A stretch of DNA of 64,000 nucleotides from Cryobacterium sp. Y11 (GTDB lineage Bacteria; Actinomycetota; Actinomycetes; Actinomycetales; Microbacteriaceae): positions 16,788 to 80,787 of the forward strand of contig NZ_PJJO01000048.1 of NCBI RefSeq assembly GCF_002929535.1, in the 5' to 3' direction. A model generated the notes under the pieces. It did no database searches. It saw only the letters and a program-made list of their open reading frames with translations, and was not told the DNA's origin. Position numbers and translations under genes: made by a program. The stretch's first letter is position 1. Each line of letters begins with the position of its first letter. This document shows positions 32,562 to 63,656 of this stretch, piece by piece.

Positions 32562-32652
32562 TTATGGGAATCGAGCGTTCCCGGAACTATGTGGAACGTC
32601 TTCGATGCTCCGTCAGTGTTCGGGTGTCTCGGTGGTTGTCCGGCTTGCGGGC
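32562..32652 (+). repeat. Cassette-boundary site 1 (composite, degenerate left half)
   Basis: A left half with 'GAGCGTTCCC' near 32573 and a clear right half ending 'GTCCGGCTTGCGGGCT' at 32625-32652. First member of the repeat family from the left. Same orientation as all others. Confidence 0.6.
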
Positions 32653-32719
32653 TGCAGGGCTACGCGAAAAGCTCCGCTGTTCTTGCTGGATGAAAGCAGT
32701 CCGGTGGGTGTATCCGAAT

Positions 32720-33394
32720 TTATCGTCTTCCGTGTGCGGCAAGGAAAAACCGAACGCCTTCGGCGACGTGACTGTGGAGCTGGGCTGTGTTCGGTATAGC
32801 TGCATCACCGAGCAGCATGGCCTCGTTGAGCGGCGCGGACATTATCAGCCAGTTGAACTGTGATGCGGTGACGGACGGGTCGTCAATCTCGAGCAGGCCG
32901 CGATCGGCCAGGCGCTCGAAAACCATTGCGAGTGCTGACGTTGCCCGCTGTGGCCCGCTCTCGTAGAGTGCCGTTGCTAGTGCGGGAAACCTGCCGACCT
33001 CGCCGATGACGAGCCGCCGAAGCTGCAGCAGCCGCGGGGTCATGACGATGGCAAGCTGCCGTTCGGCGTAGCTCTGGAGATAGTTCGCTAGTTCCGTCTC
33101 ATCTGCAGGATCGGGGACCTCGTTGTGCACGCGGTCACCCGCCTCGTTTGTCATGGTCGTCACTAGCTCGACGAATAGCGCCTCTTTGCTGCCGAAGTGT
33201 TTATAGACAGTCTGTTTCGACACCCCGGACTGAGCGGCCAATTCGTCCATGTTTGTACCGAGGTAGCCACCCTTGAGGAATGCATCCTCCGCTGCGCCAA
33301 GGATCGCTTGACGCTTAAGCGCCGATCGTTGGCCACCCTCGGGCGCACCCGACGCAAGGTTCCGTGCGGTGGCCTGTGCCATGGACAATCCCAT
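32720..33394 (-). CDS. TetR-family transcriptional regulator
   Basis: 224 residues. The N-terminal helix-turn-helix 'ILGAAEDAFLKGGYLGTNMDELA' with 'AQSGVSKQTVYKHFGSKEALF' lies at about residues 30-75; the rest resembles the AefR-like TetR_C domain ('LRRLVIGEVGRFPALATALYESG'). Start 33394 or the internal ATG 33382. It is divergent from a small DUF1905 gene, and the region between has two direct operator-like repeats, so it probably represses itself and the DUF1905/hydrolase genes. Confidence 0.9.
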   Translation of the reverse strand: MGLSMAQATARNLASGAPEGGQRSALKRQAILGAAEDAFLKGGYLGTNMDELAAQSGVSKQTVYKHFGSKEALFVELVTTMTNEAGDRVHNEVPDPADETELANYLQSYAERQLAIVMTPRLLQLRRLVIGEVGRFPALATALYESGPQRATSALAMVFERLADRGLLEIDDPSVTASQFNWLIMSAPLNEAMLLGDAAIPNTAQLHSHVAEGVRFFLAAHGRR

Positions 33395-33423
33395 TCAGGG
33401 TCGGGTATTGCTTGATTTCGCGT

Positions 33424-33468
33424 ACTGCACAGTCTAGTCTTTGCCTATAGTACTGAACGGTCTAGTCT
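33424..33468. promoter_or_regulatory. Direct-repeat operator for the TetR regulator
   Basis: Two 17-bp copies, ACTGCACAGTCTAGTCT and ACTGAACGGTCTAGTCT (15 of 17 identical), exactly 28 bases apart in the divergent promoter region. GACCGTTCAGT on the other strand resembles operators of TetR proteins that sense toxic compounds. Confidence 0.6.
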
Positions 33469-33497
33469 GATCAGCGGTTTAGGGAGTATTGACTATC

Positions 33498-33794
33498 GTG
33501 ATTGCTTCAGAAGATTCCTCCCGGCACATCGACGCTGTGTTCAGCGCTGTGATTCGCAGGAATATCGGTCCTAGCGGCTGGACCATCGTGGTCATGCTGG
33601 ACTCAGGCGAGTTCTTCGGTACCCGGAAGCCGGTCAAGGTAGCCGGCACCATGGACGGTCATGCCTTTCACGCGACACTGCTGCCTGTGGGAGCTGGCAC
33701 GCACATGGTGCCGATCAAAGCTGAGCTGCGAAAAGTCGTCGGCAAAGACGAGGGTGATCAGGTGATCGTGCACCTACGACAGCGACTGAGCTGA
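33498..33794 (+). CDS. DUF1905 family protein
   Basis: 98 residues (101 if TTG 33489 is used). It matches the DUF1905 beta-barrel: 'FSAVIRRNIGPSGWTIVVML', 'GTRKPVKVAGTMDGHAF', 'LPVGAGTHMVPIKAELRKVVGKDEGD', 'VIVHLRQRL'. The AGGGAG ribosome site at 33481 fits GTG 33498 better than TTG 33489. Function unknown; members are often next to YdeI-like proteins. It precedes an alpha/beta hydrolase and is probably in the TetR regulon. Confidence 0.8.
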   Translation: MIASEDSSRHIDAVFSAVIRRNIGPSGWTIVVMLDSGEFFGTRKPVKVAGTMDGHAFHATLLPVGAGTHMVPIKAELRKVVGKDEGDQVIVHLRQRLS

Positions 33795-33836
33795 CAATGA
33801 CAACCGATAGGGCACACACAGACAAGGAACATTCGC

Positions 33837-34625
33837 ATGAGTGAATTCGTAACAACATCCGAGGGCGATCGGGTCGCCTTCGACCGACGGGGATCCGGTC
33901 CCGCGCTGATCTTTATTGCCGGAGCCGGACCCTTCCGGGCCATCGACCCGTCAACAACGACGACCGAGGAGTTGGCGGCACAGTTAGGCATCAGGACGAT
34001 CGTCTATGACCGCTTGGGTCGCGGCGAAAGCATGGTTGACGGGCGGATCGACCTCGAGCGGGAACTTGCTGCTGTTGTGGCGCTTCTCGAAATCGCTGGC
34101 GGAAGTGCTGTATTGTGTGGGCACTCCTCCGGCTGCTCGATCGCTTTGGCGGCTGCCGTATCAGGCCTGCCGGTCGACGGACTTGTCCTCTGGGAGGCAC
34201 CGCTTGGGCCACAGGACGGCGAGGCGCGGGAGTGGGCCGACGAAGTGGACCGACGAATCTCCGCAGGTGACCTTGAGGGTGCCTTGATCCACTACATGAA
34301 AGACATGCCGCCGGAGTTCCTCGCCGGTGTGCGCACCTCTCCGATGTGGCCGGGCCTGGTTGCCCAAGTTGGTAGCCTCCGCCCCGACGGGGAATCGCTC
34401 GCGTGGGCCGAGTCTGCGCCGCTCCCAGAATTGTTTGCCAGCATCAGGGTTCCCGTTGAGGTGCTGATTGGTGAGGAGACTTTCCCGGTGATGATCACGG
34501 CGGCCGACGCGATCGTCGCGGCGATACCCGGTGCGACACAGAAGCGGATGGCAGGCGCCAACCACTCGTGGGAGCCCGGGCCGATGGCCGTCGAACTTGC
34601 CGCGTTCGTCACATCGTCGAAATGA
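33837..34625 (+). CDS. Alpha/beta hydrolase
   Basis: 262 residues. The nucleophile elbow is 'GHSSGCS' (Ser about residue 97) and the likely catalytic His is in 'GANHSWEPG' near residue 246. The N-terminal 'DRRGSGPALIFIAGAGPFRAID' supplies the oxyanion-hole loop. Fold as in small esterases and haloperoxidase-like hydrolases; substrate unknown. It follows DUF1905 by 42 bases, with a likely shared promoter. Confidence 0.85.
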   Translation: MSEFVTTSEGDRVAFDRRGSGPALIFIAGAGPFRAIDPSTTTTEELAAQLGIRTIVYDRLGRGESMVDGRIDLERELAAVVALLEIAGGSAVLCGHSSGCSIALAAAVSGLPVDGLVLWEAPLGPQDGEAREWADEVDRRISAGDLEGALIHYMKDMPPEFLAGVRTSPMWPGLVAQVGSLRPDGESLAWAESAPLPELFASIRVPVEVLIGEETFPVMITAADAIVAAIPGATQKRMAGANHSWEPGPMAVELAAFVTSSK

Positions 34626-34671
34626 CATCCATGCACGTTGAGATAAGCCACCGTATCGAAGGAGAGGTCCA

Positions 34672-35000: not shown

Positions 35001-35042
35001 CCCCGTGCATGGCTGATCGAAAACCACTTCGTCCTCAGCACC

Positions 35043-35070
35043 GCCCGCTCAGGGTTCGGCTTATGGGACG
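35043..35070 (+). repeat. Cassette-boundary site 2
   Basis: 28 bp starting GCCCGCTCAGGGTTCGG and ending CTTATGGGACG, following the broken DGPF gene. Centre GTTC as in the other copies. Confidence 0.6.
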
Positions 35071-36128: not shown

Positions 36129-36193
36129 GATCCCGTAGGACGTTCCCTATAAGATGCGGCTGCGAGTCTCACTGGAGGTGTCGCTACCGGTTC
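36129..36193 (+). repeat. Cassette-boundary site 3 (composite, short)
   Basis: Left half GATCCCGTAGGACGTTCCC at 36129; right half GTCTCACTGGAGGTGTCGC at 36166, similar to the right halves of the 98-bp sites. Confidence 0.55.
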
Positions 36194-36975: not shown

Positions 36976-37003
36976 GTCCCATTAGGCGTTCGGCTAACGG
37001 GCG
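36976..37003 (+). repeat. Cassette-boundary site 4
   Basis: 28 bp: GTCCCATTAGGCGTTC followed by GGCTAACGGGCG. The related site at 41869 follows the second copy of the same gene. The stop codon of the minus-strand GNAT gene lies inside. Confidence 0.75.
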
Positions 37004-37512
37004 CTCAACCCATGTAAATCGAGGACATACGCCTGGGTCGGGCGTCTCAACAGAGAATGCTGGAATGGTTCACCCAGCTGTCTCCATCCCATTTTCTCGT
37101 AGAGGTGCACCGCCGCATGGTGATCGGCGAGTACGTGGAGTACGGATTGGTCGTAGCCCCGTAGGGCTAGCTGGGTGGTGAGAGCCATGAGCAGACTTGC
37201 ACCGAGCCTGCGACCTTGAGCGTCCGGAGCGACGGCGAGGAGGCCGACCACCGGCGCGGCCGGCGGATCACCCACCAGACCGCTGCCCGGTTTTGTGGCG
37301 AGCCCGAATCCGACGATTCCTGTGGATGTGTCCTCGGCCACGATCCAACACTCTGAGTCGTCGAATTTCGGTCGCGCGCGCTCTGCTACGCCGACGACTG
37401 CCGCGCCGTCGCGCGCGAGGCAAGCTGCGACCCACAGTGAAAGACATTCCTCTGTATCCGCCTCATCCCCGTCGCGATATTCAATCTTGCTCATTGCGCC
37501 CGGATTCTTCAT
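36994..37512 (-). CDS. GNAT-family N-acetyltransferase
   Basis: 172 residues (166 from ATG 37494). The acetyl-CoA site is 'VVGLLAVAPDAQGRRLGASLL' (V-x-P-x-x-Q/R-x-x-G-x-G/A pattern), followed by 'VLHVLADHHAAVHLYEKMGW', the normal beta5/alpha4 end of GNATs. Substrate unknown. Its last codons and its stop are formed by the repeat site 36976-37003. Confidence 0.85.
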   Translation of the reverse strand: MKNPGAMSKIEYRDGDEADTEECLSLWVAACLARDGAAVVGVAERARPKFDDSECWIVAEDTSTGIVGFGLATKPGSGLVGDPPAAPVVGLLAVAPDAQGRRLGASLLMALTTQLALRGYDQSVLHVLADHHAAVHLYEKMGWRQLGEPFQHSLLRRPTQAYVLDLHGLSAR

Positions 37513-37564: not shown

Positions 37565-37662
37565 TTCCCGTATGGGGTTCCGCTTACGGGCAACTCGCCC
37601 CGCCAATCGACTTGAGCGGAATCACGTTTCAACGGGCCCGCTGGAGGTCCGGCTTGCGGGCA
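37565..37662 (+). repeat. Cassette-boundary site 5 (98-bp composite)
   Basis: Left 28-mer TTCCCGTATGGGGTTCC...TTACGGGCA at 37565-37592 and right 28-mer GGCCCGCTGGAGGTCC...TTGCGGGCA at 37635-37662. From 'GCTGGAGGTCC' onward the sequence is shared with the copy at about 56420. Confidence 0.8.
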
Positions 37663-37752
37663 TCAGATCGCGTGGATGATCACGGCCGACGCAGAGTTCG
37701 TACCGAAGACAGCTACACCTCATGGGTGCGTTGCTTCCTTCCCTCCGCCCGG

Positions 37753-38382
37753 TCAGTGCAGCGGCGATGTCGAACCGCTGATGGAGATGGTGTTGCCCCC
37801 GCGCTCGCCCCTGAATCGGTACTCGCCCCAGCGGATCGATTGCGACTGCTCGTGCTCGACTGCGGCCCAATCCCATCCGGTAATAGCAGGCGAGTCGGCG
37901 CCGCATTGGGGCGGGTAGGACTCCATGATCGTCGTGCAGAACACCGGTCCGTCTCCGTCATCGAGCACCATGCCGGCGAACGATTCCTCGGCGGGGCCGC
38001 TCAACGCGATCAGCAGCGCGAGGATCGCGAGCGCGAGGGCGACCGGTGTCATCGCATACCGCTCCGGTTTGGACCGGGAGATCGCATTCATCAGCACGCC
38101 GAGGGTGAGGTATCCAAAGACCACCCAGATCCCCACTGTCGAGAACGCGTTCGGAAACACGTCAGCGACACCCGCCCGGTCGAGGGCGAGCAGGGCGATG
38201 AACCCGTAGATCAGGATGGAGACGCCGGAGGCGATCCGATACCCGAGCGGCAGCACGCCGGGATGCTGCCCGCCCCACGCGAATCGTCCCCACGGCGCAC
38301 CGAAGGCGAGGGAAAGCTGGAAGAGAATCAGCAGTCCAATCAGTGTGACGAAGGCGATGGCGGCGATCACGGATGCAAGCAT
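37753..38382 (-). CDS. Membrane protein of unknown function, copy A of a duplicated cassette
   Basis: 209 residues from ATG 38382. Four membrane segments (about residues 3-24, 45-65, 75-95 and 110-130) are followed by an extracytoplasmic domain of about 75 residues with a cysteine pair ('VFCTTIMESYPPQCGADSP') and 'GWDWAAVEHEQSQ'. A near-identical protein lies at 56533-57162. Function not recognised. Confidence 0.75.
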   Translation of the reverse strand: MLASVIAAIAFVTLIGLLILFQLSLAFGAPWGRFAWGGQHPGVLPLGYRIASGVSILIYGFIALLALDRAGVADVFPNAFSTVGIWVVFGYLTLGVLMNAISRSKPERYAMTPVALALAILALLIALSGPAEESFAGMVLDDGDGPVFCTTIMESYPPQCGADSPAITGWDWAAVEHEQSQSIRWGEYRFRGERGGNTISISGSTSPLH

Positions 38383-38607
38383 ACGGGGCGCGCAGGTCAA
38401 CCCACCCTTGCCAGCAGGGAGCACCTCTGCCGCGCTGTGCTTGGGTGCGCTGCCAATATGCACGCAACTGATCAACCGAAGGGACCCCAGCAGAGCCGAG
38501 ATCGATCAGCTAACTAATGCGTGGCGAGAAGAGGGCGCCCACTCTATGGCGGTGCGATTGAGCACTACGCTGACGCGATCATCGTCCCACTGTTGTCACC
38601 AGCGTTC

Positions 38608-38686
38608 GTCCCGGTGAGCGTTCCCAACTGACACGGCATCGGTTCCTCTTTCCACCGCCCGCCTCGTTCCGTGCAACGCACTATCG
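38608..38686 (+). repeat. Cassette-boundary site 6
   Basis: Left half GTCCCGGTGAGCGTTCCC at 38608-38635; weak right half near 38660-38686. The same left half ends the duplicated copy at 57398. Confidence 0.7.
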
Positions 38687-38699: not shown

Positions 38700-39287
38700 T
38701 TAATCGACGAACCCAGCCCATAGATCCTTCGTGATGGCGTAGTCGACGTTGCCTTGATCGGAACCGGGAATCGGGCCAGCAATTCCCTCGCGCCGAGTGC
38801 CTAAATAGGTCAGGCCCAGTCGACTCATTACCGCTCGAGATCCTGCGTTGACCGCCATCGTTTCGGCGAAAATTTGGGTCAGCCCCATGTCGTCGAAGCC
38901 GTATGCGAGCAGTGCGGCGGCACCTTCAGAGGCCAATCCTTGGCGCCAGAAATCCGGTAACAGTCGATACCCCAGTTCTGCTTGTCCTCGCTCGTCATTG
39001 TCCTCCAGCGTGAGGAGCCACCAGCCGACGAAGTCTGCTCCAGCAAAACCTGCCCAGAAACCGAGACCGTTTCGCGCTTCGTCGATACGTTCTTGATGGT
39101 GTTTCTCAACTTCCAATCGCTCCCGCGGTTCGCCAGTACCGAGGTAACGCATGACGTCGGGATGTGCGTCCAGGGTGACCTCGAATTCGAGGTGCTCCTC
39201 TCCCAAGGGAACAAGAGTCAACCGTTTGGTCTGAAGAGTGCGTTGGATCATCTCCTGACTATTGCAGCCAGGCATGTCCAGGGCCAA
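38700..39287 (-). CDS. GNAT acetyltransferase, RimJ/RimL type
   Basis: 195 residues. It starts around 'MIQRTLQTKRLTLVPLGEEHLEF' and has 'AELGYRLLPDFWRQGLASEGAAALL' (the acetyl-CoA loop RQGLASEG) and 'ETMAVNAGSRAVMSRLGLTYLG', the standard RimL series. It probably acetylates a small molecule or an N-terminal amine. ATG 39251 is an alternative start, giving 'MIQRTL'. Confidence 0.85.
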   Translation of the reverse strand: MALDMPGCNSQEMIQRTLQTKRLTLVPLGEEHLEFEVTLDAHPDVMRYLGTGEPRERLEVEKHHQERIDEARNGLGFWAGFAGADFVGWWLLTLEDNDERGQAELGYRLLPDFWRQGLASEGAAALLAYGFDDMGLTQIFAETMAVNAGSRAVMSRLGLTYLGTRREGIAGPIPGSDQGNVDYAITKDLWAGFVD

Positions 39288-39356: not shown

Positions 39357-39405
39357 GTCCCGTTGAGGGTTGGCGGACTCAGTCGGTCGTTCCCCCTGCG
39401 GTCAC
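39357..39405 (+). repeat. Cassette-boundary site 7
   Basis: Left half GTCCCGTTGAGGGTTGG at 39357 and right-half-like GTCGTTCCCCCTGCGGTCAC ending about 39405. Confidence 0.55.
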
Positions 39406-40298: not shown

Positions 40299-40326
40299 GT
40301 CCCGTGAGAGGTTCCCCATGCGGACG
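40299..40326 (+). repeat. Cassette-boundary site 8
   Basis: 28 bp GTCCCGTGAGAGGTTCC...ATGCGGACG, 45 bases after the toxin stop; a degenerate right half may end near 40390. Confidence 0.7.
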
Positions 40327-41868: not shown

Positions 41869-41896
41869 GTCCCATTGGGGGTTCCTCTTGTGGATG
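41869..41896 (+). repeat. Cassette-boundary site 10
   Basis: GTCCCATTGGGGGTTCC...TGTGGATG. It shares the GTCCCATT start with site 4, at the same distance after the duplicated gene. Confidence 0.7.
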
Positions 41897-42668: not shown

Positions 42669-42754
42669 GTCCCGTAGAGCGTTCCCCAAACGAAACGGAT
42701 GAAAGTCGCCGATCGACCGTTTGCGTGTCCCACTCGCCGTCCGGCTTGCGGGAC
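42669..42754 (+). repeat. Cassette-boundary site 11 (86-bp composite)
   Basis: Left half GTCCCGTAGAGCGTTCCCC at 42669-42696; right 28-mer GTCCCACTCGCCGTCC...CTTGCGGGAC at 42727-42754. Confidence 0.8.
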
Positions 42755-44100: not shown

Positions 44101-44128
44101 GTCCCGCACGACGTTCCCCTCGCGGGCG
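44101..44128 (+). repeat. Cassette-boundary site 13
   Basis: 28 bp GTCCCGCACGACGTTCC...TCGCGGGCG. Confidence 0.7.
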
Positions 44129-51626: not shown

Positions 51627-51654
51627 GACCCGCATGGGGTTGGTCTTGAGGGAC
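51627..51654 (+). repeat. Cassette-boundary site 19
   Basis: 28 bp GACCCGCATGGGGTTGG...CTTGAGGGAC. Confidence 0.65.
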
Positions 51655-51728
51655 GCGCTACGCCCTGATTCCGGTGAGCGGGAGGTACTCGTCAAGCCGA
51701 GAGTGCTTCCGTAGGGGATACTGCATTT

Positions 51729-51944
51729 ATGGGGAAGAGAAAAGAATCGCTCGCTTGGTGGTCAGTTATTGCGATCGCGGTCCCCGCCATGGGGTTTGGC
51801 GTATTTTTACTCGCACAGGCCTCGTCCATGCAGACCTTGGTGGGCGGAGGCGTTCTCGTCCTCATCGCACTGACCGCAGTTTTCAATGCAGTGCTGAGTC
51901 TGCGGAAGCTATCGCGACCGACCGGGTGGCGTTCTGCCCCGTGA
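51729..51944 (+). CDS. Small membrane protein, 2 TM
   Basis: 71 residues 'MGKRKESLAWWSVIAIAVPA...' with two helices (about 10-28 and 36-56) and a basic end 'LRKLSRPTGWRSAP'. Its stop overlaps the GTG start of the DJ-1 gene (GTGA), so they share a transcript. Confidence 0.55.
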   Translation: MGKRKESLAWWSVIAIAVPAMGFGVFLLAQASSMQTLVGGGVLVLIALTAVFNAVLSLRKLSRPTGWRSAP

Positions 51945-52614: not shown

Positions 52615-52642
52615 GTCCCGTAGGGGGTTCCCCCTACGGGAC
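52615..52642 (+). repeat. Cassette-boundary site 20 (perfect palindrome)
   Basis: 13-bp arms GTCCCGTAGGGGG and CCCCCTACGGGAC around a central TT, 28 bp in all, 8 bases after the DJ-1 stop. It is the most symmetric member and defines the unit length of the family. Confidence 0.9.
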
Positions 52643-53054: not shown

Positions 53055-53300
53055 GTGGAGAATGACGACACGGCAGAGGCCGCGGCAGCCGGGGATGACC
53101 CGAAGAGCGGTTTGCGTGCTGTCGTCGCTCTCCGAGCCCACGCTGACGCGCTCGAGCTGCGAGAAGTGGAAGCTGCTCTCCGCGTCGGATTGAGCTGGTC
53201 TGAAATCGCCGCAGCTCTTGGCGTCACTCGGCAGGCTGTCCACAAGAAATATCACCGTCGTATCGATCCGACCATCCCCGTCCCGAGGAGAAACCCGTGA
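53055..53300 (+). CDS. Small HTH regulator
   Basis: 81 residues from GTG 53055. Acidic start, then 'ALELREVEAALRVGLSWSEIAAAL' and 'GVTRQAVHKKYHRRI', a classical helix-turn-helix (IAAALGVTRQAVHKKY). It overlaps the next start by four bases. It likely binds the repeats just upstream and autoregulates the Clp_N protein gene. Confidence 0.82.
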   Translation: MENDDTAEAAAAGDDPKSGLRAVVALRAHADALELREVEAALRVGLSWSEIAAALGVTRQAVHKKYHRRIDPTIPVPRRNP

Positions 53301-54286
53301 GCACATTCACGACTGCCGCCGCTACTATGCAGCAACTGTCGCAAGCAGGCATGGAAGAAGCCTCGCGGCATGGGCTGCGGGTGGGGGATTTGGAGCACCT
53401 CTTCGCGGCCCTGGTCCTCAATGACCAGCTCGCCGGACGAGCGCTCCGCGCGATCGGTCTCTCGCTCGAGGGCGTCCGCGATGCCACCCACAGGATGAAC
53501 GCTGCGCACCTGCAGCGTCTCCGCGTCACGACCATGACGGCAGAACCTCAGCGGATCGTTTTTCAGGAGACACGGGGCTACGAATGGACCCCTCGTGCGA
53601 TGGACGTGCTGACGGCTGCTGGCGGCAAGAACGCCGGCGACGCGGAAGCGGTGTTGCGCGCACTGCTGATCGAACCTAGCGGCCTGATGAATGACCTTCT
53701 CGCCCACCTCGACACGTCAGCGGACGCCGTGCGAACTGCGTTAGCAGCCGAAGCTGCGCAACCCACACCCCTCTCCAACGGCACGCTCAAGTCGCCTGAC
53801 AAAAGAGGCGTTCTCGTGGAGATCTTCGTGCCTGCCCCGTCGGCCGCAGTGTGGAGCCTGCTTGCCGACCCGGCCCGGCTCCCGGAATGGCACTACCTCA
53901 TCGGATCGGTCGAGGTCGACACAGCCGCAGAGATCGTCCCCGGTGTCATCTGGGCCGTCCTGGCCCCTACCCATCAACCCGACGGAACCCCGGTGCGGGT
54001 CAAGGAGCGGTTTCGTCGGCACCAGATGCAGCTACTCGTTATTGAGCAGCCCAATCGCATCAGCTGGCGGTCCAGTTACCCCGACTTCCCCCGGCGTCGC
54101 GCAATCGAACTGAGCATTCAAATCACGGCGGTAGCCGGAGGCTGCCAAGTGCGCGCGACGTCATCTGGCACACCAGGCCCGACGTGGAAGACCCTCCTAT
54201 TCTCGCCACTGCACCCCCTGAAACGATTCTTGGACTGGATCTCTCTCACTCAGATCACCGCAGGCATCAGCCGCGCCTTCCGGTAG
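53297..54286 (+). CDS. Clp N-terminal domain protein fused to SRPBCC domain
   Basis: 329 residues from GTG 53297. Residues about 1-150 hold two Clp_N repeats ('SQAGMEEASRHGLRVGDLEHLFAAL', 'AMDVLTAAGGKNAGDAEAVLRAL'), normally the substrate/adaptor module of ClpA/ClpC, here without any AAA+ domain. Residues about 170-329 are a polyketide-cyclase/SRPBCC ligand-binding fold ('VEIFVPAPSAAVWSLLADPARLPEW', 'ISWRSSYPDFPRR', 'ATSSGTPGPTWKTLL'). I infer a stress or adaptor protein that binds a hydrophobic ligand. Co-transcribed with the HTH regulator. Confidence 0.85.
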   Translation: MSTFTTAAATMQQLSQAGMEEASRHGLRVGDLEHLFAALVLNDQLAGRALRAIGLSLEGVRDATHRMNAAHLQRLRVTTMTAEPQRIVFQETRGYEWTPRAMDVLTAAGGKNAGDAEAVLRALLIEPSGLMNDLLAHLDTSADAVRTALAAEAAQPTPLSNGTLKSPDKRGVLVEIFVPAPSAAVWSLLADPARLPEWHYLIGSVEVDTAAEIVPGVIWAVLAPTHQPDGTPVRVKERFRRHQMQLLVIEQPNRISWRSSYPDFPRRRAIELSIQITAVAGGCQVRATSSGTPGPTWKTLLFSPLHPLKRFLDWISLTQITAGISRAFR

Positions 54287-54336: not shown

Positions 54337-54364
54337 GTCCCGTAGAGGGTTCCCATCTGACACT
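54337..54364 (+). repeat. Cassette-boundary site 21
   Basis: GTCCCGTAGAGGGTTCCC followed by ATCTGACACT; the latter resembles the GTGACACA inner box of sites 23 and 27. Confidence 0.72.
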
Positions 54365-56344: not shown

Positions 56345-56442
56345 GTCCCGTAGTGGGTTCCCAAGTGACACAGCATCTTCCCGCAACGCCGGTGGGTGGA
56401 TTGGTTGCAGACCTGTCGCGCTGGAGGTCCGGCTTGCGGGCT
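56345..56442 (+). repeat. Cassette-boundary site 23 (98-bp composite)
   Basis: Left 28-mer GTCCCGTAGTGGGTTCCC...GTGACACA at 56345-56372; right 28-mer GTCGCGCTGGAGGTCC...TTGCGGGCT at 56415-56442. It opens duplicated cassette copy B. Confidence 0.85.
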
Positions 56443-56532
56443 TCAGCGTGCGTAGATGATCACGGCCGACGCAGAGTTCGTACCAAAGACAGCTACACCT
56501 AATCAGTGCGTTCCTTCCTTCCCTCCGCCCGG

Positions 56533-57162
56533 TCAGTGCAGCGGCGATGGCGAACCGCTGATGGAGATGGTGTTGCCCGCGCGCTCGCCCCTGAATCGGT
56601 ACTCGCCCCAGCGGATGGTTTGCGACTGCTCGTGCTCGACCGCGGCCCAATCCCACCCGGTAATAGAAGGGGAGTCGGCGCCGCATTGGGGCGGGTAGGA
56701 CTCCATGATCGTCGTGCAGAACACCGGTCCGTCCCCGTCATCGAGCACCATGCCGGCGAACGATTCCTCAGCGGGGCCGCTCAACGCGATCAGCAGCGCG
56801 AGCAACGAGAGCGCGAGGGCGACCGGCGTCATCGCATACCGCTCCGGTTTGGACCGGGAGATCGCATTCATCACCACGCCGAGAGTGAGGTATCCCAAGA
56901 CCACCCAGATCCCCACTGTCGAGAACGCGTTCGGAAACACGTCAATGACACCCGCCCGGTCGAGGGCGAGCAGGGCGATGAACCCGTAGATCAGGATGGA
57001 GACGCCGGAGGCGATCCGATACCCGAACGGCAGCACGCCGGGATGCTGCCCGCCCCACGCGAATCGTCCCCACGGCGCGCCGAAGGCGAGGGAAAGCTGG
57101 AAGAGAACCAGCAGGCCAATCAGTGTGCCGAAGGCGATGGCGGCGATCATGGATGCAAGCAT
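56533..57162 (-). CDS. Membrane protein of unknown function, copy B of a duplicated cassette
   Basis: 209 residues from ATG 57162, nearly identical to 37753-38382 (differences such as SITGWDWAA for AITGWDWAA). Same four helices and the same extracytoplasmic cysteine pair. The similarity covers the flanks as well, from the right half of site 23 to the left half of site 24. Confidence 0.78.
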   Translation of the reverse strand: MLASMIAAIAFGTLIGLLVLFQLSLAFGAPWGRFAWGGQHPGVLPFGYRIASGVSILIYGFIALLALDRAGVIDVFPNAFSTVGIWVVLGYLTLGVVMNAISRSKPERYAMTPVALALSLLALLIALSGPAEESFAGMVLDDGDGPVFCTTIMESYPPQCGADSPSITGWDWAAVEHEQSQTIRWGEYRFRGERAGNTISISGSPSPLH

Positions 57163-57397
57163 ATGGGGCGCGCAGGTAACCCCCCTTGCTGGCAGGGAGC
57201 ACCTCTGACGTGCTGTGCTTGGTTGCGCTGCCAATGCCCGCAACTGATTAACCGCAGGGACCGCGGCAGAGACGAGATCGATCAGCTAACTTATGCCAAC
57301 TTACTAATGCGTGGCGAGAAAAGGGCACCCGCTCTAGGGCGGTGCGATTGAGCAATACGCCGACACGATCATCGTCCCACAGCGGTCACCAGCGTTT

Positions 57398-57425
57398 GTC
57401 CCGGTGAGGGTTCCTCTGCGGGCGA
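57398..57425 (+). repeat. Cassette-boundary site 24
   Basis: GTCCCGGTGAGGGTTCC then TCTGCGGGCGA; partner of site 6. Confidence 0.75.
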
Positions 57426-57580: not shown

Positions 57581-58252
57581 ATGCTCGCCATTATTAAGTC
57601 GCGTAAATCATGGGCGGCGCTGTTTGTACTGACGTCGTCCGCCCTCGTTTTCCTCTCGGGTTGTGCGAACGCCACCCCTGGCCCAGCGGCCTCAAGCTCG
57701 ACAGCCCCAGCGAGCTCGCTCGCGCTCACCCTCGACGTCGCGGGTCAAGAACAACTCGACTGGGAATGGGAGCGAGTGTTACGCGAATCGCCCGATGCGG
57801 TGCGACCGATGATCGACATCGTTCGCTTCGTTGACAACGATGACTGGGGAACGGCGAGGGAGAGTTGCATGCACGATTTGGGTTGGCCCGACGTGCGCGC
57901 CACTGCGGATGGCGGGCTGGAGTCCGGCATGATTCAAAACTCCCAGGCCGGAGCGCATGCTCTGGCCATGTACACGTGTAACGCGAAGTACCCGATGGAT
58001 CCGAAGTACAACGTGCCGCTCACCGATGAGCGCCTTGGCGAGCTGTTTGATTACTTCACAGATGAGCTCCAGCCCTGCTTAGCGACCGAAGGGTATGACA
58101 CTCCGGCTGCTCCGAGCCGGGAGACGTTCATCGATACCTACGCCGAGACCGGTGGTTGGAACCTCTACGAAGGCGTAGCGGGGAATGGACAATCTGAATG
58201 GAATGCGATCAACAAGAAGTGCCCGCAACTCCCCGTCGACTTCAATGAGTGA
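57581..58252 (+). CDS. Lipoprotein of unknown function upstream of an ABC exporter
   Basis: 223 residues. Signal 'WAALFVLTSSALVFLSGC' with lipobox 'LSGC'. The domain 'WERVLRESPDAVRPMIDIVRF', 'ESCMHDLGWPDVRA', 'YTCNAKYPMDPKYN' has four conserved-looking cysteines. It overlaps the membrane-fusion gene by 8 bases, so it is the first gene of a four-gene exporter operon and may be its accessory or substrate-related protein. Confidence 0.75.
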   Translation: MLAIIKSRKSWAALFVLTSSALVFLSGCANATPGPAASSSTAPASSLALTLDVAGQEQLDWEWERVLRESPDAVRPMIDIVRFVDNDDWGTARESCMHDLGWPDVRATADGGLESGMIQNSQAGAHALAMYTCNAKYPMDPKYNVPLTDERLGELFDYFTDELQPCLATEGYDTPAAPSRETFIDTYAETGGWNLYEGVAGNGQSEWNAINKKCPQLPVDFNE

Positions 58253-59324
58253 CACAGCAGCGGGTCGCTCACCGCGCTGGGCTCTCTGGGTCACCGGCCT
58301 GCTCGTCGCAGTCGGGGCTGGCGCCGGCGTGGGGTGGGCAGCGACGACAGCGCTGACACCCCCACGGGATGTTGTGGCCACAACCGCGTTCACCCTCGTC
58401 GAGGTTGTGCCCGGCGAGGTGGGGTCGAGCATCAACCTGAACACGGTGGCGCAGTGGACTCCGGTGCCCGCCGGATCAAACCAGGCAGTCGGCACCGTCA
58501 CCTCCGTGAATGTCACCGCGGGCCAAAGCGTCGCGGTCGGGGCGACGCTCTACACCGTGAACCTGCGACCGGTTGTGATCGCCCAGGGCCAGGTGCCGGC
58601 GTTCCGTGCGCTGGCGCAGGACGCCGAAGGAGCGGATGTCACGCAGCTGCAGCAGGCGCTCACCGACCTGGCGCTCTACACTGGCGCGGTCGATGGACAG
58701 TTCGGCCCCCGCACCACCACGGCGGTCAAGACGTGGCAGAAGTCTCTGGGCGTTCCCACCGACGGCGTCGTGCAGCCGGGCGACATCATCTTTGTCCCGA
58801 CGCTGCCGACCCAGGTAGCTCTCGATACCGAGATCGTCACGCGTGGGGCGCTCCTCACCGGCGGAGAAAACGTCGTGCGGGCGTTACCGGCCGCGCCCAT
58901 CTTCACCGTACCGGTCAGCGAATCCCAGGCCGCGTTGATGCCCACGGGTACCCGGGTAGAAATCACCAGCATCGACGGCGGCATTTGGGAAGGGTTCGTG
59001 GCCGACCAGGCCGCTGATGAGACCGGACTGATTGTCATCACCCTCGTGGGCAAAGACGGCGCGGTCATCTGCGCCGATGCCTGCGCGAGCATCCCCGTCA
59101 CGGAGCAGTCGCTGCTGTCATCACGGATCGTCACGGTGGAATCGATCGCCGGACTGATGGTCCCGAGTGCCGCGCTGCTCAGCGCGGCCGACGGCACCGC
59201 ATCCGTCATCGACAACGCCGGCACGAGTCATCCCGTGACGGTGGTCACCAGCGCCCGCGGAATGTCGATCATTGACGGCGTCGCCGACGGCACCTCGGTG
59301 CGCATCCCGGCGACGGCCGACTAG
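58245..59324 (+). CDS. Membrane-fusion-like exporter subunit with peptidoglycan-binding domain
   Basis: 359 residues from ATG 58245 (the open frame starts 60 bases earlier inside the lipoprotein gene). One N-terminal membrane anchor (about residues 12-34), an HlyD-like barrel ('GTVTSVNVTAGQSVAVGATLYTV'), then a PG_binding_1 domain ('DVTQLQQALTDLALYTGAVDGQFG' then 'PRTTTAVKTWQKSLG') and a second barrel part. The peptidoglycan-binding domain may couple the exporter to the cell wall, as known for similar actinobacterial proteins. The ATPase follows after 2 bases. Confidence 0.85.
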   Translation: MSDTAAGRSPRWALWVTGLLVAVGAGAGVGWAATTALTPPRDVVATTAFTLVEVVPGEVGSSINLNTVAQWTPVPAGSNQAVGTVTSVNVTAGQSVAVGATLYTVNLRPVVIAQGQVPAFRALAQDAEGADVTQLQQALTDLALYTGAVDGQFGPRTTTAVKTWQKSLGVPTDGVVQPGDIIFVPTLPTQVALDTEIVTRGALLTGGENVVRALPAAPIFTVPVSESQAALMPTGTRVEITSIDGGIWEGFVADQAADETGLIVITLVGKDGAVICADACASIPVTEQSLLSSRIVTVESIAGLMVPSAALLSAADGTASVIDNAGTSHPVTVVTSARGMSIIDGVADGTSVRIPATAD

Positions 59325-59326
59325 CC

Positions 59327-59974
59327 ATGGTCGATACCATCCGGCTGGCCGCCCGCGACATCACCTTCGGCTACGTGCCGACCGCGCCGATTCTCTCGGA
59401 GTGGAGCGCGGACTTCCATGCCGGAGAGGTGGTCGCCATTACCGGCCCGTCCGGGCGCGGCAAGTCCACCCTGCTCTACGTGCTCGGCCTCATGCTCAAA
59501 CCCACCGCCGGACAGGTGCAGATCGACGGGACGGATGCTGCGCACCGGCGCGACGCAGACCGCGCCGGTTTACGGGCGCATCAGTATGGCTTCGTCTTTC
59601 AAGACGCTGCCCTTGATGCCACCCGAACGGTGCTGGACAACATCATCGAGACCACCCTCTACCGTGGAACCCCCAGGAAGCCGGCCATTCCGCGCGCGCA
59701 CGAGCTGATGGACCAGTTCGGCGTCGCGCTGCGAGCGGGGGCGAAACCGGGTCAGGTGTCGGGCGGTCAGGCGCAACGCATCGCGCTCTGCCGTGCCCTA
59801 CTCAACGACCCGCAGATTCTGCTCGCGGACGAGCCCACCGGCAACCTCGATCCGGCCTCATCCGACCTCGTCGTCGATGCTCTGCACGCTCAGGCCCACC
59901 GCGGCGCGGCCGTCATCGTCGTCACCCACGACCCGGCACTGGTCGCCCGCTGCGACCGCCGACTCGAACTATGA
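59327..59974 (+). CDS. ABC exporter ATP-binding protein, MacB/LolD type
   Basis: 215 residues. Walker A reads 'GPSGRGKSTLL' (Arg in place of the usual Ser/Cys), Q-loop 'FVFQDAALDATRTVLDN', signature 'VSGGQAQRIALCRA', Walker B 'ILLADEPTGNLD', H-loop 'VVTHDPALVARCD'. Partner of the following FtsX permease (ATGA overlap). Export direction is inferred from the family. Confidence 0.9.
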   Translation: MVDTIRLAARDITFGYVPTAPILSEWSADFHAGEVVAITGPSGRGKSTLLYVLGLMLKPTAGQVQIDGTDAAHRRDADRAGLRAHQYGFVFQDAALDATRTVLDNIIETTLYRGTPRKPAIPRAHELMDQFGVALRAGAKPGQVSGGQAQRIALCRALLNDPQILLADEPTGNLDPASSDLVVDALHAQAHRGAAVIVVTHDPALVARCDRRLEL

Positions 59975-61077
59975 GCGCGCTGCGCCGGTGGGCTGCCGTG
60001 GTGCGGGAAGCGTTGGCGACGGCGTGGGCGCAACCCGTCGCATCCGTTGTCACCATCGTCATGGTCGCCGGTATGTGTGCCACGGTACTGCTGACGACTG
60101 GACGCACGGTCGGGGCGGAGCAGGCCGTGCTCGGCTCAATCGACTCGGAGGGGACGCGTTCCATCATCATTCGTGCCGACACCGACGCCGGGCTCGACGC
60201 CACAGTGCTGGACCGGCTGGCACACATCGACGGCATCCAATGGGCTGGAGCGTTCGGTATCGCCCAGGACGTCACCAACCTCCAATTTGCCGGCGCGACC
60301 AAGGTCCCCATGCGCTTGGCCTGGAGCAGCCAACTCAACCACCTCGGGATCACCACGCTGCCGCCAGTGAGCAACGCCTCGATCTGGGCATCACCGACTG
60401 CGCTGGCGGGCCTGGGAATGCCGGACGCCGTCGGGGCTGTCGTGGACGACTCCGGCGTCGACTTCGCCGTCACCGGGAGCCTGACCGTTCCGGACTTTCT
60501 CGCCTTCCTTGAACCCCTCGTCATCGCCCCGCAGACCGAAAACACCCCGGGAACGGTCGCCGTGCTCATTGTCATCGCCGACCGCCCCGACCTGGTCGCT
60601 CCCGTCTCCGACGCGGTGCGATCCGTCCTGGCGGTCACCGATCCCGCCAAAGTGACCCTGACCACGAGTGAAAACCTCGCCGCACTCCGTGGCCTGGTTG
60701 AAGGACAGCTGGATTCGTTCGGCCGCAGCCTCGTCGTCGTCGTTTTCGCACTGACCGCGGTGCTGGTGGCAGCGATTCTTTACGGCCTGGTGATGCTGCG
60801 TCGCAAGGACTTCGGGCGCCGCCGCGCCTTGGGCGCCTCCCAAGCCCTGATCATCTCGCTGCTCCTCACGCAAACCGGTGCCCTCGCCCTGGTCGGTGCC
60901 ACGATCGGCAGCATTGCAGCGTCGATCGGGCTGACCGCCTCCGGAGATCCACTCCCGGGCTGGGACTTCGTCGGCGCCGTCGCACTCCTGTCGACCACCA
61001 TCGGCGTGATCGCGGCCCTGGTACCCGCGCTGGCGGCCGCCCGCCGCGATCCGCTCAAAGAACTCCGCGTGCCGTAA
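59971..61077 (+). CDS. FtsX-like ABC permease
   Basis: 368 residues with the MacB plan: one N-terminal helix (about 20-42), a large extracytoplasmic domain, and three C-terminal helices ('SLVVVVFALTAVLVAAILYGLVM', 'ALIISLLLTQTGALALVGATIG', 'VGAVALLSTTIGVIAALVPALAA'), with 'RRKDFGRRRALGAS' as the FtsX loop contacting the ATPase. Last gene of the exporter operon. The operon is bounded by sites 24 and 25. Confidence 0.9.
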   Translation: MSALRRWAAVVREALATAWAQPVASVVTIVMVAGMCATVLLTTGRTVGAEQAVLGSIDSEGTRSIIIRADTDAGLDATVLDRLAHIDGIQWAGAFGIAQDVTNLQFAGATKVPMRLAWSSQLNHLGITTLPPVSNASIWASPTALAGLGMPDAVGAVVDDSGVDFAVTGSLTVPDFLAFLEPLVIAPQTENTPGTVAVLIVIADRPDLVAPVSDAVRSVLAVTDPAKVTLTTSENLAALRGLVEGQLDSFGRSLVVVVFALTAVLVAAILYGLVMLRRKDFGRRRALGASQALIISLLLTQTGALALVGATIGSIAASIGLTASGDPLPGWDFVGAVALLSTTIGVIAALVPALAAARRDPLKELRVP

Positions 61078-61168
61078 CCAACGGCGCACTGACCAATGTC
61101 AGGAAACGAACAGGGCGACATAGCTGATCCAGGATTAATCGCCTAGAGCAGACAGCTCGGCCAAATTG

Positions 61169-61196
61169 TCCCGTAGGGGGTTCACCTTGCGGCGAT
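61169..61196 (+). repeat. Cassette-boundary site 25
   Basis: GTCCCGTAGGGGGTTCACC then TTGCGGCGA, close to the perfect palindrome at 52615. Confidence 0.8.
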
Positions 61197-61251
61197 TGTC
61201 TCGGGTCCTTGATATGTGGCTAAGTTGGCGTTCCTGGCGCATACTGGAGAT

Positions 61252-61527
61252 ATGAGTACAGACACGGAGCTTTCTGTCAGCCAAGCGCGGGATCACTTTT
61301 CCGATGCCGTGAACCGGGCTGCGTTCGGTGGTGAGATCACCTACGTGACGCGCGGGCGAGGGCAGCAGCGGGCTGCTGCGATCGTGCCAGCCGAGTTCGT
61401 TGACCGGTACGAGGCGATGCTTGACAGCGAGGACGGTCGGATCGCGTTGGAGCGATTGGCCGATCTCGACGCCGGCCGCACCAAGACTGTCTCGGCTGAT
61501 GAGGTGGCCTTGGCACTGGGGCTGTGA
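61252..61527 (+). CDS. Type II antitoxin, Phd/YefM family
   Basis: 91 residues from ATG 61252 with GGAGA before it. 'LSVSQARDHFSDAVNRAAFG' and 'GEITYVTRGRGQQRAAAIVPA' are the Phd/YefM DNA-binding fold; the C-terminal tail would neutralise the toxin. Four-base overlap with the toxin gene. Confidence 0.88.
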   Translation: MSTDTELSVSQARDHFSDAVNRAAFGGEITYVTRGRGQQRAAAIVPAEFVDRYEAMLDSEDGRIALERLADLDAGRTKTVSADEVALALGL

Positions 61528-61799
61528 GTGCGCCTGGGTCGTTCGCTGTTGAATATGACCCGAAAGCGCTCAAGGAGTTGGCCAAGTTCGACAAGCCGGT
61601 GGTGCGCCGTGTCATCAAGGCCATCAACGCGTTGGGCGCCGACCCGCGTCCAAGCGGTGTTCGCCCTCTTGTTGGGTATCCAAATCTGTGGCGAATCCGC
61701 GTCGGCGAGTATCGCGTTGTTTACACGATCAAAGACGCTGAACTCGTGGTTCTCGCTTTACGGGTAGCCCACCGCAGCAGCGTCTATCGCGGCCTCTGA
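61524..61799 (+). CDS. Type II toxin, RelE/ParE family
   Basis: 91 residues from GTG 61524. 'FAVEYDPKALKELAKFDKPV', 'RPSGVRPLVGYPNLWRIRVGEYRV' and 'VYTIKDAELVVLALRVAHR' are the RelE fold with the typical 'W-R-I-R-V-G-x-Y-R-V-x-Y' core. It probably cleaves mRNA at the ribosome. TA pair complete. Confidence 0.9.
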   Translation: MSAPGSFAVEYDPKALKELAKFDKPVVRRVIKAINALGADPRPSGVRPLVGYPNLWRIRVGEYRVVYTIKDAELVVLALRVAHRSSVYRGL

Positions 61800-62633: not shown

Positions 62634-62722
62634 TGAAGTCCCCCTCGCTCAGTAGCCGTGCCACTGACGCTATCGCTCCGAGACCGGTCGCCAATCTTTG
62701 AATGCTGCGAGGCCTCCGTCAA

Positions 62723-62820
62723 TTCCCGTAAGGGGTTCCCGTGTGACACAACGTCGGCGGACTCGGTCGCGGGGTGGTTTGGCCCCAGATCTGTCGCGCT
62801 CGACGTCCGGCTTGCGGGAC
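62723..62820 (+). repeat. Cassette-boundary site 27 (98-bp composite)
   Basis: Left 28-mer TTCCCGTAAGGGGTTCCC...GTGACACA; right 28-mer GTCGCGCTCGACGTCC...CTTGCGGGAC. Same total length and same inner boxes as site 23. Confidence 0.85.
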
Positions 62821-62851
62821 TGTTTGCAAGGGCTATGCAACACTTGTCACC

Positions 62852-63277
62852 ATGAGACGCTGGATTCGAAACCTTGCCGTTGGTCTGCCCTTGCGCGGCG
62901 AGCACGTTCTCGCTTCGCTTGGGGGTGACCGGTTGACGGGCGTCGAGTTCTGCCGCGCGATTGGCGGTGGAATCGATTTCGGTGAAACCTCTGACCAGGC
63001 TTTGCGCCGGGAGTTCCGGGAGGAGCTGGGCTTCGACGTGGAACCAACTCTTTTGCTCGGCGTCGTGGAGAACTTATTCGAGTTTGAGGGAATCCCCGGG
63101 CATGAGATTGTGCACGTCTATGCGGTTGAGTCACCTGATTTCGATGCGCTCAACCTCGATGCTGATCTCACGATTCTCGATGAAGGGAGTGCTGTTCGTT
63201 GGTATACCCGATCTCAGTTCAAAGCACGAAAGCCACCGTTATACCCCGAGGGAATCTTGGACCTACTGCCTGCCTGA
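62852..63277 (+). CDS. NUDIX hydrolase
   Basis: 141 residues from ATG 62852 (the open frame begins inside the repeat site). The Nudix box 'GGGIDFGETSDQALRREFREELGF' (given as GGGIDFGETSDQ then ALRREFREELGF) has the catalytic R-E-x-x-E-E. It hydrolyses a nucleoside diphosphate-linked compound; specificity unknown. A single-gene cassette between sites 27 and 28. Confidence 0.9.
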   Translation: MRRWIRNLAVGLPLRGEHVLASLGGDRLTGVEFCRAIGGGIDFGETSDQALRREFREELGFDVEPTLLLGVVENLFEFEGIPGHEIVHVYAVESPDFDALNLDADLTILDEGSAVRWYTRSQFKARKPPLYPEGILDLLPA

Positions 63278-63312
63278 CGTTCCGCTGCGACGAGACCTGC
63301 GGGTCGGAAATG

Positions 63313-63340
63313 TGGCTCTAAGCGTTCGGCTTACTGGTCA
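63313..63340 (+). repeat. Cassette-boundary site 28
   Basis: CTCTAAGCGTTCGG then CTTACTGGTC; it contains the stop codon (TTA at 63331) of the next minus-strand gene. Confidence 0.6.
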
Positions 63341-63591
63341 ATGCGATGCGTCTGATCCTTCGCCGTCTTTTTTGTCTTGGCAGTCAAAGCGATGACCGCG
63401 CTTGCAGCTGAGAGGACGGCTAGCAGCAGAGCGAGAACCAGACTAAAAACATGCCCTCCGTTGGTTCCCGTGTCTCCGCTCGCGATCGCAATTATCTGGA
63501 TCGTTGCGTTTGCAAGCCAGAGCACGACCATTGCGAGGCTGAGCCCGACCTGGTGCCTGCCGATCCACAAAAGCATCCGTCTGCCAGTCAT
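63331..63591 (-). CDS. Small membrane protein, 2 TM
   Basis: 86 residues: 'RHQVGLSLAMVVLWLANATIQIIA' (read GLSLAMVVLWLANATIQII), outside loop 'SGDTGTNGG', then 'FSLVLALLLAVLSAASAVIAL' and a basic end. Stop codon inside the repeat site, as for the GNAT and SGNH genes. Confidence 0.6.
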   Translation of the reverse strand: MTGRRMLLWIGRHQVGLSLAMVVLWLANATIQIIAIASGDTGTNGGHVFSLVLALLLAVLSAASAVIALTAKTKKTAKDQTHRIDQ

Positions 63592-63628
63592 GGTGTCAAT
63601 ATATCCGTGTGATCTTCCAATTCCTACG

Positions 63629-63656
63629 AGTCCGATAGGGGTTCGGCGAATTCAAC
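63629..63656 (+). repeat. Cassette-boundary site 29 (next to IS30)
   Basis: AGTCCGATAGGGGTTCGG, touching the end of the IS30 copy. The last visible member of the family. Confidence 0.5.

What the first reader, a model, noticed from the sequence alone, without database searches (positions are those of the whole stretch)
32562..63656. Array of gene cassettes bounded by a 28-bp palindromic site family
About 28 boundaries in 31 kb carry the same site: left form GTCCCGTAGRGGGTTCC, right form GTCCGGCTTGCGGGAC, centre GTTC, about 28 bp. All asymmetric copies point the same way although the genes do not. Between them lie mostly single, unrelated genes typical of cassette arrays (GNATs, TA pairs, lipoproteins, NUDIX, small TM proteins). 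This looks like a cluster of recombination sites without integrase (CALIN), or a cassette system of a different tyrosine recombinase. Dispersed REP-like elements would not be expected to keep one orientation.
Basis: partly seen in the sequence, partly recalled or inferred. Interest (0 to 1): 0.95.

Follow-up and report, generated by a model that had tools for sequence, protein, structure and literature searches.

The report
Integron-like gene array using serine recombinase
In a bacterium of the genus Cryobacterium, a row of unrelated genes is divided by one short DNA site that always faces the same way, the same pieces turn up beside different neighbours in related species, and the row begins at the control region of a serine recombinase that likely does the shuffling, a job that integrons do with an unrelated enzyme.

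Summary
From 32.5 kb to the contig end the window carries up to about 30 copies of a 28-bp site, the clear ones all on the + strand. It is a cassette array of the genus Cryobacterium, but not an integron or CALIN: the two site arms do not covary (no folded attC), and none of the three own-genome tyrosine recombinases that I classified is an integron integrase. In 220 distinct sites, 57 pairs share only the left flank, 85 only the right, none both; breakpoints map to the central GTTC. Sites with centres TT and TC hardly mix, as a 2-bp overlap requires. The left end (32508-32653) matches the control region of a small serine recombinase (PF00239) whose gene is lost here; two intact copies with that region sit elsewhere in the genome. 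Of 17 such platforms in the genus, 11 have sites in reach: 51 downstream, all one way; none upstream that way. The recombinase subfamily is in 15 of 18 site-rich and 0 of 15 site-poor genomes. In 7 of 16 plasmid relatives the same site arms lie 122-161 bp upstream of the gene. Best reading: cassettes shuffled by a serine resolvase, an integron analogue from another enzyme family. Recombination itself is inferred.

The parts
32508..32653 (+). Platform: res-like control region of the serine recombinase (type 2), ending in its GTCC-centred site (32626-32653); the recombinase gene that should lie to its left is missing
   Evidence: nhmmer E 1.5e-31 to the upstream regions of 6 recombinase genes with whole frames; 58-68% identity to the six in an alignment that includes flanks
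31686..32546 (-). Chromosomal UPF0029 gene abutting the platform; the start of the frame is read from platform-side DNA
   Evidence: Pfam PF01205; most relatives align only from about residue 50-65 on
35042..35069 (+). weak site, GTTC, right half good
36130..36157 (+). site, GTTC, left half good
36976..37003 (+). site, GTTC
37565..37592 (+). site, GTTC (first of a 70-bp pair)
37635..37662 (+). site, GTCC (second of the pair)
38608..38635 (+). site, GTTC, left half only
39357..39384 (+). weak site, GTTG
40299..40326 (+). site, GTTC
41869..41896 (+). site, GTTC
42669..42696 (+). site, GTTC (first of a 58-bp pair)
42677..42754 (+). partial platform-like stretch inside the array, ending in the GTCC site 42727-42754
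   Evidence: nhmmer, profile positions 70-150, E 4.3e-6
44101..44128 (+). site, GTTC
46667..46694 (+). site, GTTC
48726..48753 (+). site, GTTC
50329..50356 (+). site, GTTC
50854..50951 (+). weak pair of GTTC right halves 70 bp apart
51627..51654 (+). weak site, GTTG
52615..52642 (+). site, GTTC, perfect palindrome
54337..54364 (+). site, GTTC
56345..56372 (+). site, GTTC (first of a 70-bp pair)
56415..56442 (+). site, GTCC
57398..57425 (+). site, GTTC
61168..61195 (+). site, GTTC
62723..62750 (+). site, GTTC (first of a 70-bp pair)
62793..62820 (+). site, GTCC
63312..63339 (+). weak site, GTTC, right half only
37639..38624 (.). cassette, copy 1 of a duplicated cassette
   Evidence: 92% identity over about 1 kb with 56419-57414; the shared stretch ends at the GTTCC centre
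56419..57414 (.). cassette, copy 2, with different neighbours
36994..37512 (-). cassette gene, GNAT acetyltransferase
38700..39287 (-). cassette gene, GNAT acetyltransferase
46770..48701 (.). cassette with EamA transporter (-) and LysR regulator (+)
48745..50315 (.). cassette with GDSL lipase (-) and arginase-family gene (+)
51674..52606 (+). cassette gene, DJ-1/PfpI
53297..54286 (+). cassette gene, polyketide cyclase/AHSA1
58185..61077 (+). cassette with peptidoglycan-binding protein, ABC ATPase and FtsX permease
61216..61799 (+). cassette with ParE-type toxin and a Phd/YefM-like antitoxin (the latter below Pfam's cut-off)
62774..63277 (+). cassette gene, NUDIX

Best explanation
This is an array of gene cassettes separated by 28-bp sites whose arms match the site in front of a small serine recombinase (resolvase type), an enzyme that likely moves the cassettes by cutting and rejoining two bases at the site centre. 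Shown in sequence: the sites, their single direction, the reassortment of cassettes at the GTTC centre, the platform at the left end, and recombinase genes that face away from the sites in related arrays. Inferred: the enzyme binds the arms as a dimer, pairs two sites with the same central dinucleotide, makes a 2-base staggered cut and swaps half-sites, so that a cassette between two like sites would be cut out as a circle or joined elsewhere. The copy in the window has lost its own recombinase gene and would depend on the two intact copies elsewhere in the genome.
For: (1) Reassortment with a fixed breakpoint: 220 distinct sites; 57 pairs share the left flank only, 85 the right only, 0 both (shared = 80% or more of 30 bases, not shared = under 50%; other pairs not counted). 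Agreement with the left partner is back at background from position 18 and at 10-12 is little above it; agreement with the right partner is above background from 16 on (position 11 is raised in both groups, 17 slightly in the left one). (2) Left and right arms pair about as often as independent draws (131 sites; largest excess 64 against 55.0). (3) TT and TC centres form two groups that hardly mix: of 38 right-flank families with 2 or more partners 1 is mixed against 7.8 expected, of 50 left-flank families 2 against 20.8, 0 of 5000 deals as low (pairs). PMC11607074 (passages) states that serine recombinase sites with mismatched 2-bp overlaps make no more than traces of recombinants. (4) Sites that exchanged partners differ at position 17 in 35% and at 12 in 19% of pairs, against an overlap of 6 or more bp. 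(5) Platform: window 32508-32653 matches the upstream region of 6 recombinase genes (E 1.5e-31). (6) 17 distinct platforms in Cryobacterium, 11 with sites in reach: 51 downstream sites in the platform's direction, 0 opposite downstream, 0 same-direction upstream, 1 opposite upstream (a recount without named double copies; some platforms have little sequence on the upstream side). (7) Recombinase subfamily at 195 bits or more, whole or broken, in 15 of 18 genomes with 15 or more sites, 11 of 24 with 3-12, 0 of 15 with 0-2 (grouped by hand; Fisher 1e-6 for the outer groups). (8) Plasmid relatives: 9 of 16 score above the 95% level of 379 control pieces, P 5.5e-7; 7 of these 9 have the site 122-161 bp upstream of the gene, with centres GTTC, GATC, GTGT, GGTC or GACC. 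(9) PF00239 plus resolvase HTH in 6 of 6; nearest solved structures a DNA invertase (4m6f) and gamma-delta resolvase. (10) Nearest site opposite in direction to the recombinase gene in 18 of 19 (9 of 28 had no site in reach).
Against: No recombination was observed. Three site-rich genomes (G010, G019, G036) lack the subfamily. The six type-2 platforms and most type-1 sites have a GTCC centre while cassette sites are mostly GTTC, and the two hardly mix, so insertion at the platform, the core of the integron analogy, is not supported. Only 9 of 17 platforms have a recombinase frame, whole or broken, in the expected place, and in two with identical sequence (L172, L215) the platform lies at the 3' end of another serine recombinase gene. 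7 of 16 plasmid homologues show no site above the control level, and the seven well-placed ones come from Arthrobacter, Pseudarthrobacter and Pseudonocardia only. Accessory sites II and III are suggested by conservation alone. The family is widespread on plasmids (6,628 proteins at E <= 1e-60 among 7,999 scored), where the plain job is probably dimer resolution. Locus L203 is in 9 of the 10 mixed pairs. The window's platform shows that this array once had such a gene, not that it works today.
Confidence: 0.8

Rival explanations
1. A cassette array driven by a tyrosine recombinase: an unusual integron or CALIN, or XerC/XerD acting on dif-like 28-bp sites as in Acinetobacter dif modules.
For: 28 bp is also the length of a Xer site (recalled); every genome has at least two strong tyrosine recombinase matches of XerC/XerD type (by score and place; one was classified as XerC-like); dif modules of Acinetobacter shuffle in a similar way (abstract of PMC13141974).
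Against: Both arms are one motif inverted and do not covary; exchange despite differences at positions 12 and 17. Of 8 own-genome matches three were classified and none reaches the integron-integrase cut-off. G010 (33 sites) has besides XerC/XerD only short or broken tyrosine recombinases. Platforms match the control region of a serine recombinase. Xer binding was not tested.
Confidence: 0.1
2. The sites are spread by insertions of plasmids or transposons that carry the recombinase (many res copies left behind), and the mosaic comes from homologous recombination and decay, not from cassette movement.
For: The recombinase family is common on plasmids; a partial platform lies inside the window's array (42677-42754); transposase-like genes sit in the G072 array (by eye).
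Against: Flank sharing stops at the centre from both sides and no pair shares both flanks; a 28-bp site is very short for homologous recombination to break there each time; TT/TC segregation.
Confidence: 0.07
3. REP-like or terminator palindromes between genes.
For: Palindromic arms; many sites lie between genes.
Against: One direction irrespective of gene direction (160 to 3), arms do not covary, clustered rather than dispersed, linked to a recombinase control region.
Confidence: 0.02

Closest known systems
Integron and CALIN (IntI, attI, attC)
   Same: Rows of accessory genes, one-way sites, recombinase gene facing away from the array, platform between gene and cassettes, arrays that have lost the recombinase
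   Different: Serine instead of tyrosine recombinase; 28-bp site without a conserved fold instead of attC; sites sorted by central dinucleotide; no sign of insertion at the platform. [quoted passage not shown]
Acinetobacter dif modules (pdif sites, XerC/XerD)
   Same: Short sites around movable genes; [quoted passage not shown]
   Different: Host Xer enzymes and, as recalled, alternating site orientation; here one orientation and a serine recombinase
Tn3 and gamma-delta resolvase with res (sites I, II, III)
   Same: Protein family; a control region of similar length (res of 114 bp in PMC9943657, passages; about 150 bp here); crossover site at the end away from the gene (for Tn3 recalled)
   Different: Known res serves resolution of cointegrates, one copy per transposon; here crossover sites bound dozens of unrelated genes
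Multiple DNA inversion systems of serine invertases (Min of p15B, recalled, no call)
   Same: Several 26-28-bp sites, small serine recombinase
   Different: They invert segments of one locus; here sites point one way and bound whole genes
SCC elements with Ccr serine recombinases (recalled; Ccr models match weakly)
   Same: Serine recombinase moving gene cargo
   Different: Large serine recombinase, one insertion site, no array

Membership tests
Integron | IntI tyrosine integrase | tested here: not met
   Eight PF00589 matches in the own genome; three proteins scanned against NCBIfam: TIGR02249 scores 101.7 and 39.7 and no match, cut-off 265; the match on C39 (taken as XerD from its neighbours), the three on C43 and a fragment on C53 were not scanned
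Integron | attC sites with conserved secondary structure | tested here: not met
   Arm pairing within 9 of 131 sites of the independent expectation at every pair; IntegronFinder's own covariance model was not available
Integron | recombinase gene divergent from a platform site that starts the array | tested here: met
   11 of 17 platforms have sites in reach, 51 of 51 downstream sites one way; gene in place in 9 of 17, lost in the window; functional analogue only
Integron | cassette insertion at the platform site | tested here: inconclusive
   Platform centres of the six type-2 copies are GTCC, cassette centres mostly GTTC, and they hardly mix
Small serine recombinase with res | resolvase catalytic domain and HTH | tested here: met
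   PF00239 and PF02796 above cut-off in 6 of 6 proteins
Small serine recombinase with res | 28-bp crossover site upstream of the gene with the arms of the array site | tested here: met
   Cryobacterium copies; 9 of 16 plasmid relatives above the control level, 7 of these at -122 to -161
Small serine recombinase with res | strand exchange over the central 2 bp, needing identity | tested here: met
   In silico only: TT/TC segregation, breakpoints at about positions 11-16
Small serine recombinase with res | accessory sites II and III bound by the enzyme | not testable with these tools
   A conserved stretch lies between site and start codon; binding unknown
dif modules | sites in alternating orientation (recalled) | tested here: not met
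   Neighbouring pairs 160 same to 3 opposite
dif modules | XerC- and XerD-binding arms | not tested
   The two arms are one motif inverted; the genome's dif site was not looked for
REP elements | dispersed, both orientations | tested here: not met

The most novel reading that the evidence does not exclude
A serine-recombinase integron: a plasmid resolvase whose crossover site became a cassette site, giving arrays of up to dozens of one-way gene cassettes in Cryobacterium, with the central dinucleotide acting as an address code (TT, TC; AT in a Pseudarthrobacter plasmid) that decides which cassettes can join. It would be an independent invention of the integron by an unrelated enzyme class.
Probability: 0.6. 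Interest if true: 0.97.

Novelty: categorically new. Interest (0 to 1): 0.93.

Why it matters
The integrons known to me use a tyrosine recombinase that acts on folded single-stranded sites; a serine-recombinase version would show that gene-cassette capture arose at least twice, and would show how Actinobacteria, in which PMC9024848 found no complete integron (passages), can hold large movable gene stores. It also suggests a sortable cassette tool: same arms, address set by two bases. Searches of the held paper library (listings only) showed no paper on such a system; preprints and most subscription papers are not held.

Tried and rejected
Rejected: long sites as folded attC with R''-L''-L'-R' boxes. 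The 58/70-bp pairs looked like attC, but the same cassette start occurs directly after a GTTC site without the intervening stretch (L203 14603, against window 56427), and arms do not covary. Rejected: tyrosine recombinases near arrays. Fragments in G010 C13 and G078 C6 and the genes in G010 C3 and G035 C11 look, by eye, like phage integrases or remnants. Rejected: a shared gene at the point where two arrays diverge (L201, L208); only L208 holds a recombinase there. Led nowhere: the exact pattern outside Cryobacterium; the Marinomonas and Kushneria matches are tRNA genes (by eye); the 27 viral matches were not followed up. Outside the genus the model R1 matched 20 genomes among 398 searched in the family, one to five matches each, at E <= 0.01, about four of which chance would give. 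Weak test: sites upstream of the UPF0029 gene in 29 other genomes; its threshold also missed the window's own platform site. The platform profile run over the same 30 loci (0.5-1.6 kb upstream held) found the platform in the own genome only. Recounted: one search held a named double copy and had dropped the window as a double of L315; one search replaces it. One search read the wrong files and found nothing; one search replaced it.
Full report
What is there. The window is G000 C28 16788-80787, and the contig ends with the window. From 32.5 kb to the end it carries a 28-bp site of two inverted 12-bp arms around GTTC, less often GTCC: 18 left-half matches, all on +, 19 matches to a joint two-half score and none in the first 32 kb, none in the reversed window; about 30 with weak one-sided matches, some of which may be noise. 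Genes between the sites run both ways, one to a few per cassette, and are unrelated accessory genes: GNATs, EamA with LysR, GDSL lipase, arginase family, DJ-1/PfpI, a polyketide cyclase-like protein, ABC/FtsX genes, a ParE-type pair, NUDIX (16 of the 30 frames scanned had no family at E 0.001, and some of those frames may not be genes).

Whose genome. The genus is Cryobacterium. The exact pattern is absent from the 23 genomes of 21 other genera sampled (17 of 60 genomes matched, all of this genus). A sequence-only model of the site (R1) finds 53 matches in the own genome and at least one in 51 of 57 Cryobacterium genomes; 18 hold 17-67 (E <= 0.5 per genome, so one or two matches can be chance). 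In the own genome they cluster on a few contigs, all in one direction on C22, C28 and C33. In the family, 20 genomes of other genera among 398 searched had one to five matches at E <= 0.01 (chance would give about four).

It shuffles. Among 220 distinct sites (sites with less than 60 bases of flank and repeats of the same stretch were dropped; the regions were fetched because they hold sites or recombinases), 57 pairs share only the left flank and 85 only the right; none share both (pairs are not independent, since families recur). The switch lies at about positions 11-16, around the GTTC centre at 13-16. A duplicated cassette in the window shows the same thing: about 1 kb at 92% identity, ending at GTTCC, with different neighbours. 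Left and right arms of a site pair about as often as independent draws (131 sites; at most 9 above expectation), as expected if they come from different cassettes. Distinct neighbouring sites point the same way 160 times and the opposite way 3 times.

The enzyme. No tyrosine recombinase was seen to track the arrays (one search's listing was cut). A 194-aa serine recombinase does. A subfamily scoring 195 bits or more, whole or broken, is in 15 of 18 genomes with at least 15 sites, 11 of 24 with 3-12 (three more of these hold short fragments) and 0 of 15 with 0-2 (grouping by hand). Domain scans give PF00239 and the resolvase HTH in 6 of 6. The best solved relatives are a DNA invertase (4m6f, E 4e-32) and gamma-delta resolvase. 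Its gene runs against the nearest site in 18 of 19 cases; the exception, L208, has an opposite array on its other side; 9 of 28 copies had no site within 8 kb.

The platform. Upstream of six type-2 copies lies a conserved stretch of about 150 bases that ends in a GTCC-centred site. The same stretch is the left end of the window's array, 32508-32653, E 1.5e-31, with the gene gone and a UPF0029 gene beside it. That locus in 29 other Cryobacterium genomes has no platform in the 0.5-1.6 kb held (loci, profile). I count 17 distinct platforms in Cryobacterium; 11 have sites in reach, with 51 downstream sites all in the platform's direction, none opposite, no same-direction site upstream and one opposite site upstream; several have under 3 kb on the upstream side. 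Nine of the 17 have a recombinase frame, whole or broken, in the expected place, eight do not, the window among them. In L172 and L215, whose platforms are identical, the platform lies at the 3' end of a different serine recombinase gene. Two more platforms, L284 and L293, come from another genus and have a recombinase gene beside them. The own genome keeps two whole type-2 genes with platforms, C50 12346 and C23 7668.

Independent link between enzyme and site. I looked at 16 relatives on plasmids of Arthrobacter, Pseudarthrobacter, Pseudonocardia, Curtobacterium, Frondihabitans, Kocuria and Rhodococcus. In the 260 bases before the start codon 9 of 16 score above the 95% level of 379 random pieces (P 5.5e-7). 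Seven of the nine sit at -122 to -161: four in Arthrobacter, one in Pseudarthrobacter, two in Pseudonocardia; the other two (Rhodococcus -27, Frondihabitans -210) are weak and elsewhere. Centres of the seven are GTTC, GATC, GTGT, GGTC or GACC. Pseudarthrobacter psychrotolerans plasmid NZ_CP047899.1 has GATC-centred matches at six places in 30 kb, all between annotated genes (15 matches with any centre, 7 in the reversed control).

Address code. Sites with centre TT and TC keep apart: of 38 right-flank families with at least two partners, 34 are TT only, 3 TC only and 1 mixed (7.8 expected); of 50 left-flank families, 42, 6 and 2 (20.8 expected) (346 junctions, only GTTC and GTCC centres were taken). 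Nine of ten mixed pairs involve one locus, L203. PMC11607074 (passages) says that sites differing in the central two bases make no more than traces of recombinants. Differences at positions 12 and 17 do not bar exchange. This fits a 2-bp overlap and argues against the 6-8 bp of tyrosine recombinases (that length is recalled).

Open points. The type-2 platforms carry TC, cassettes mostly TT, so how a cassette would enter at the platform is unclear; TC sites may serve exchange of whole arrays, TT sites that of single cassettes. G010, G019 and G036 are rich in sites but lack the subfamily; either they have lost the enzyme, or this counts against the model. Type-1 genes (for example L252, L254) have a hairpin and a GTTC site behind them and a site that ends some 40 bases before the start, so they look like cassettes themselves. 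Nothing here shows recombination at work.

Verdict. A cassette array of resolvase-type crossover sites. It works like an integron and is not a member of that family. No paper on such a system came up (search listings; open-licence papers only).

Noticed in passing
L299 (NZ_CP047899.1 29650-60213): Pseudarthrobacter psychrotolerans plasmid carries GATC-centred sites with similar arms at six places between genes; the palindromic AT centre would allow inversion as well as deletion.
   Followed up: partly
window 31686-32546: The frame called UPF0029 starts in platform-side DNA; most homologues begin near residue 50-65, so the longest-frame start is probably wrong.
   Followed up: partly
G000 C43 2338-5559 (L012): Three tandem tyrosine recombinase genes, like recombinase-in-trio elements (name recalled).
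   Followed up: no
L041, L085, L093, L101: Matches of the site pattern in Marinomonas and Kushneria are tRNA genes by eye, a trap for pattern searches.
   Followed up: partly
window 55807-55989 and 63817-64000: Inverted repeat of about 180 bp at 88-95% between two places of the array; may be what broke the assembly at the contig end.
   Followed up: no
L019 2053-2508, L230 11967-12590, L168 13549-13806: Broken or altered recombinase copies inside or beside arrays; some arrays seem to have lost an active gene.
   Followed up: partly
L022 11826-14696: A different serine resolvase beside transposase-like genes (by eye) sits between array sites on C48, same direction as the sites; looks like an inserted transposon.
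   Followed up: no
L172 8490-9274, L215 6665-7449: The same platform sequence at the 3' end of another, 241-aa serine recombinase in two genomes; unexplained.
   Followed up: no
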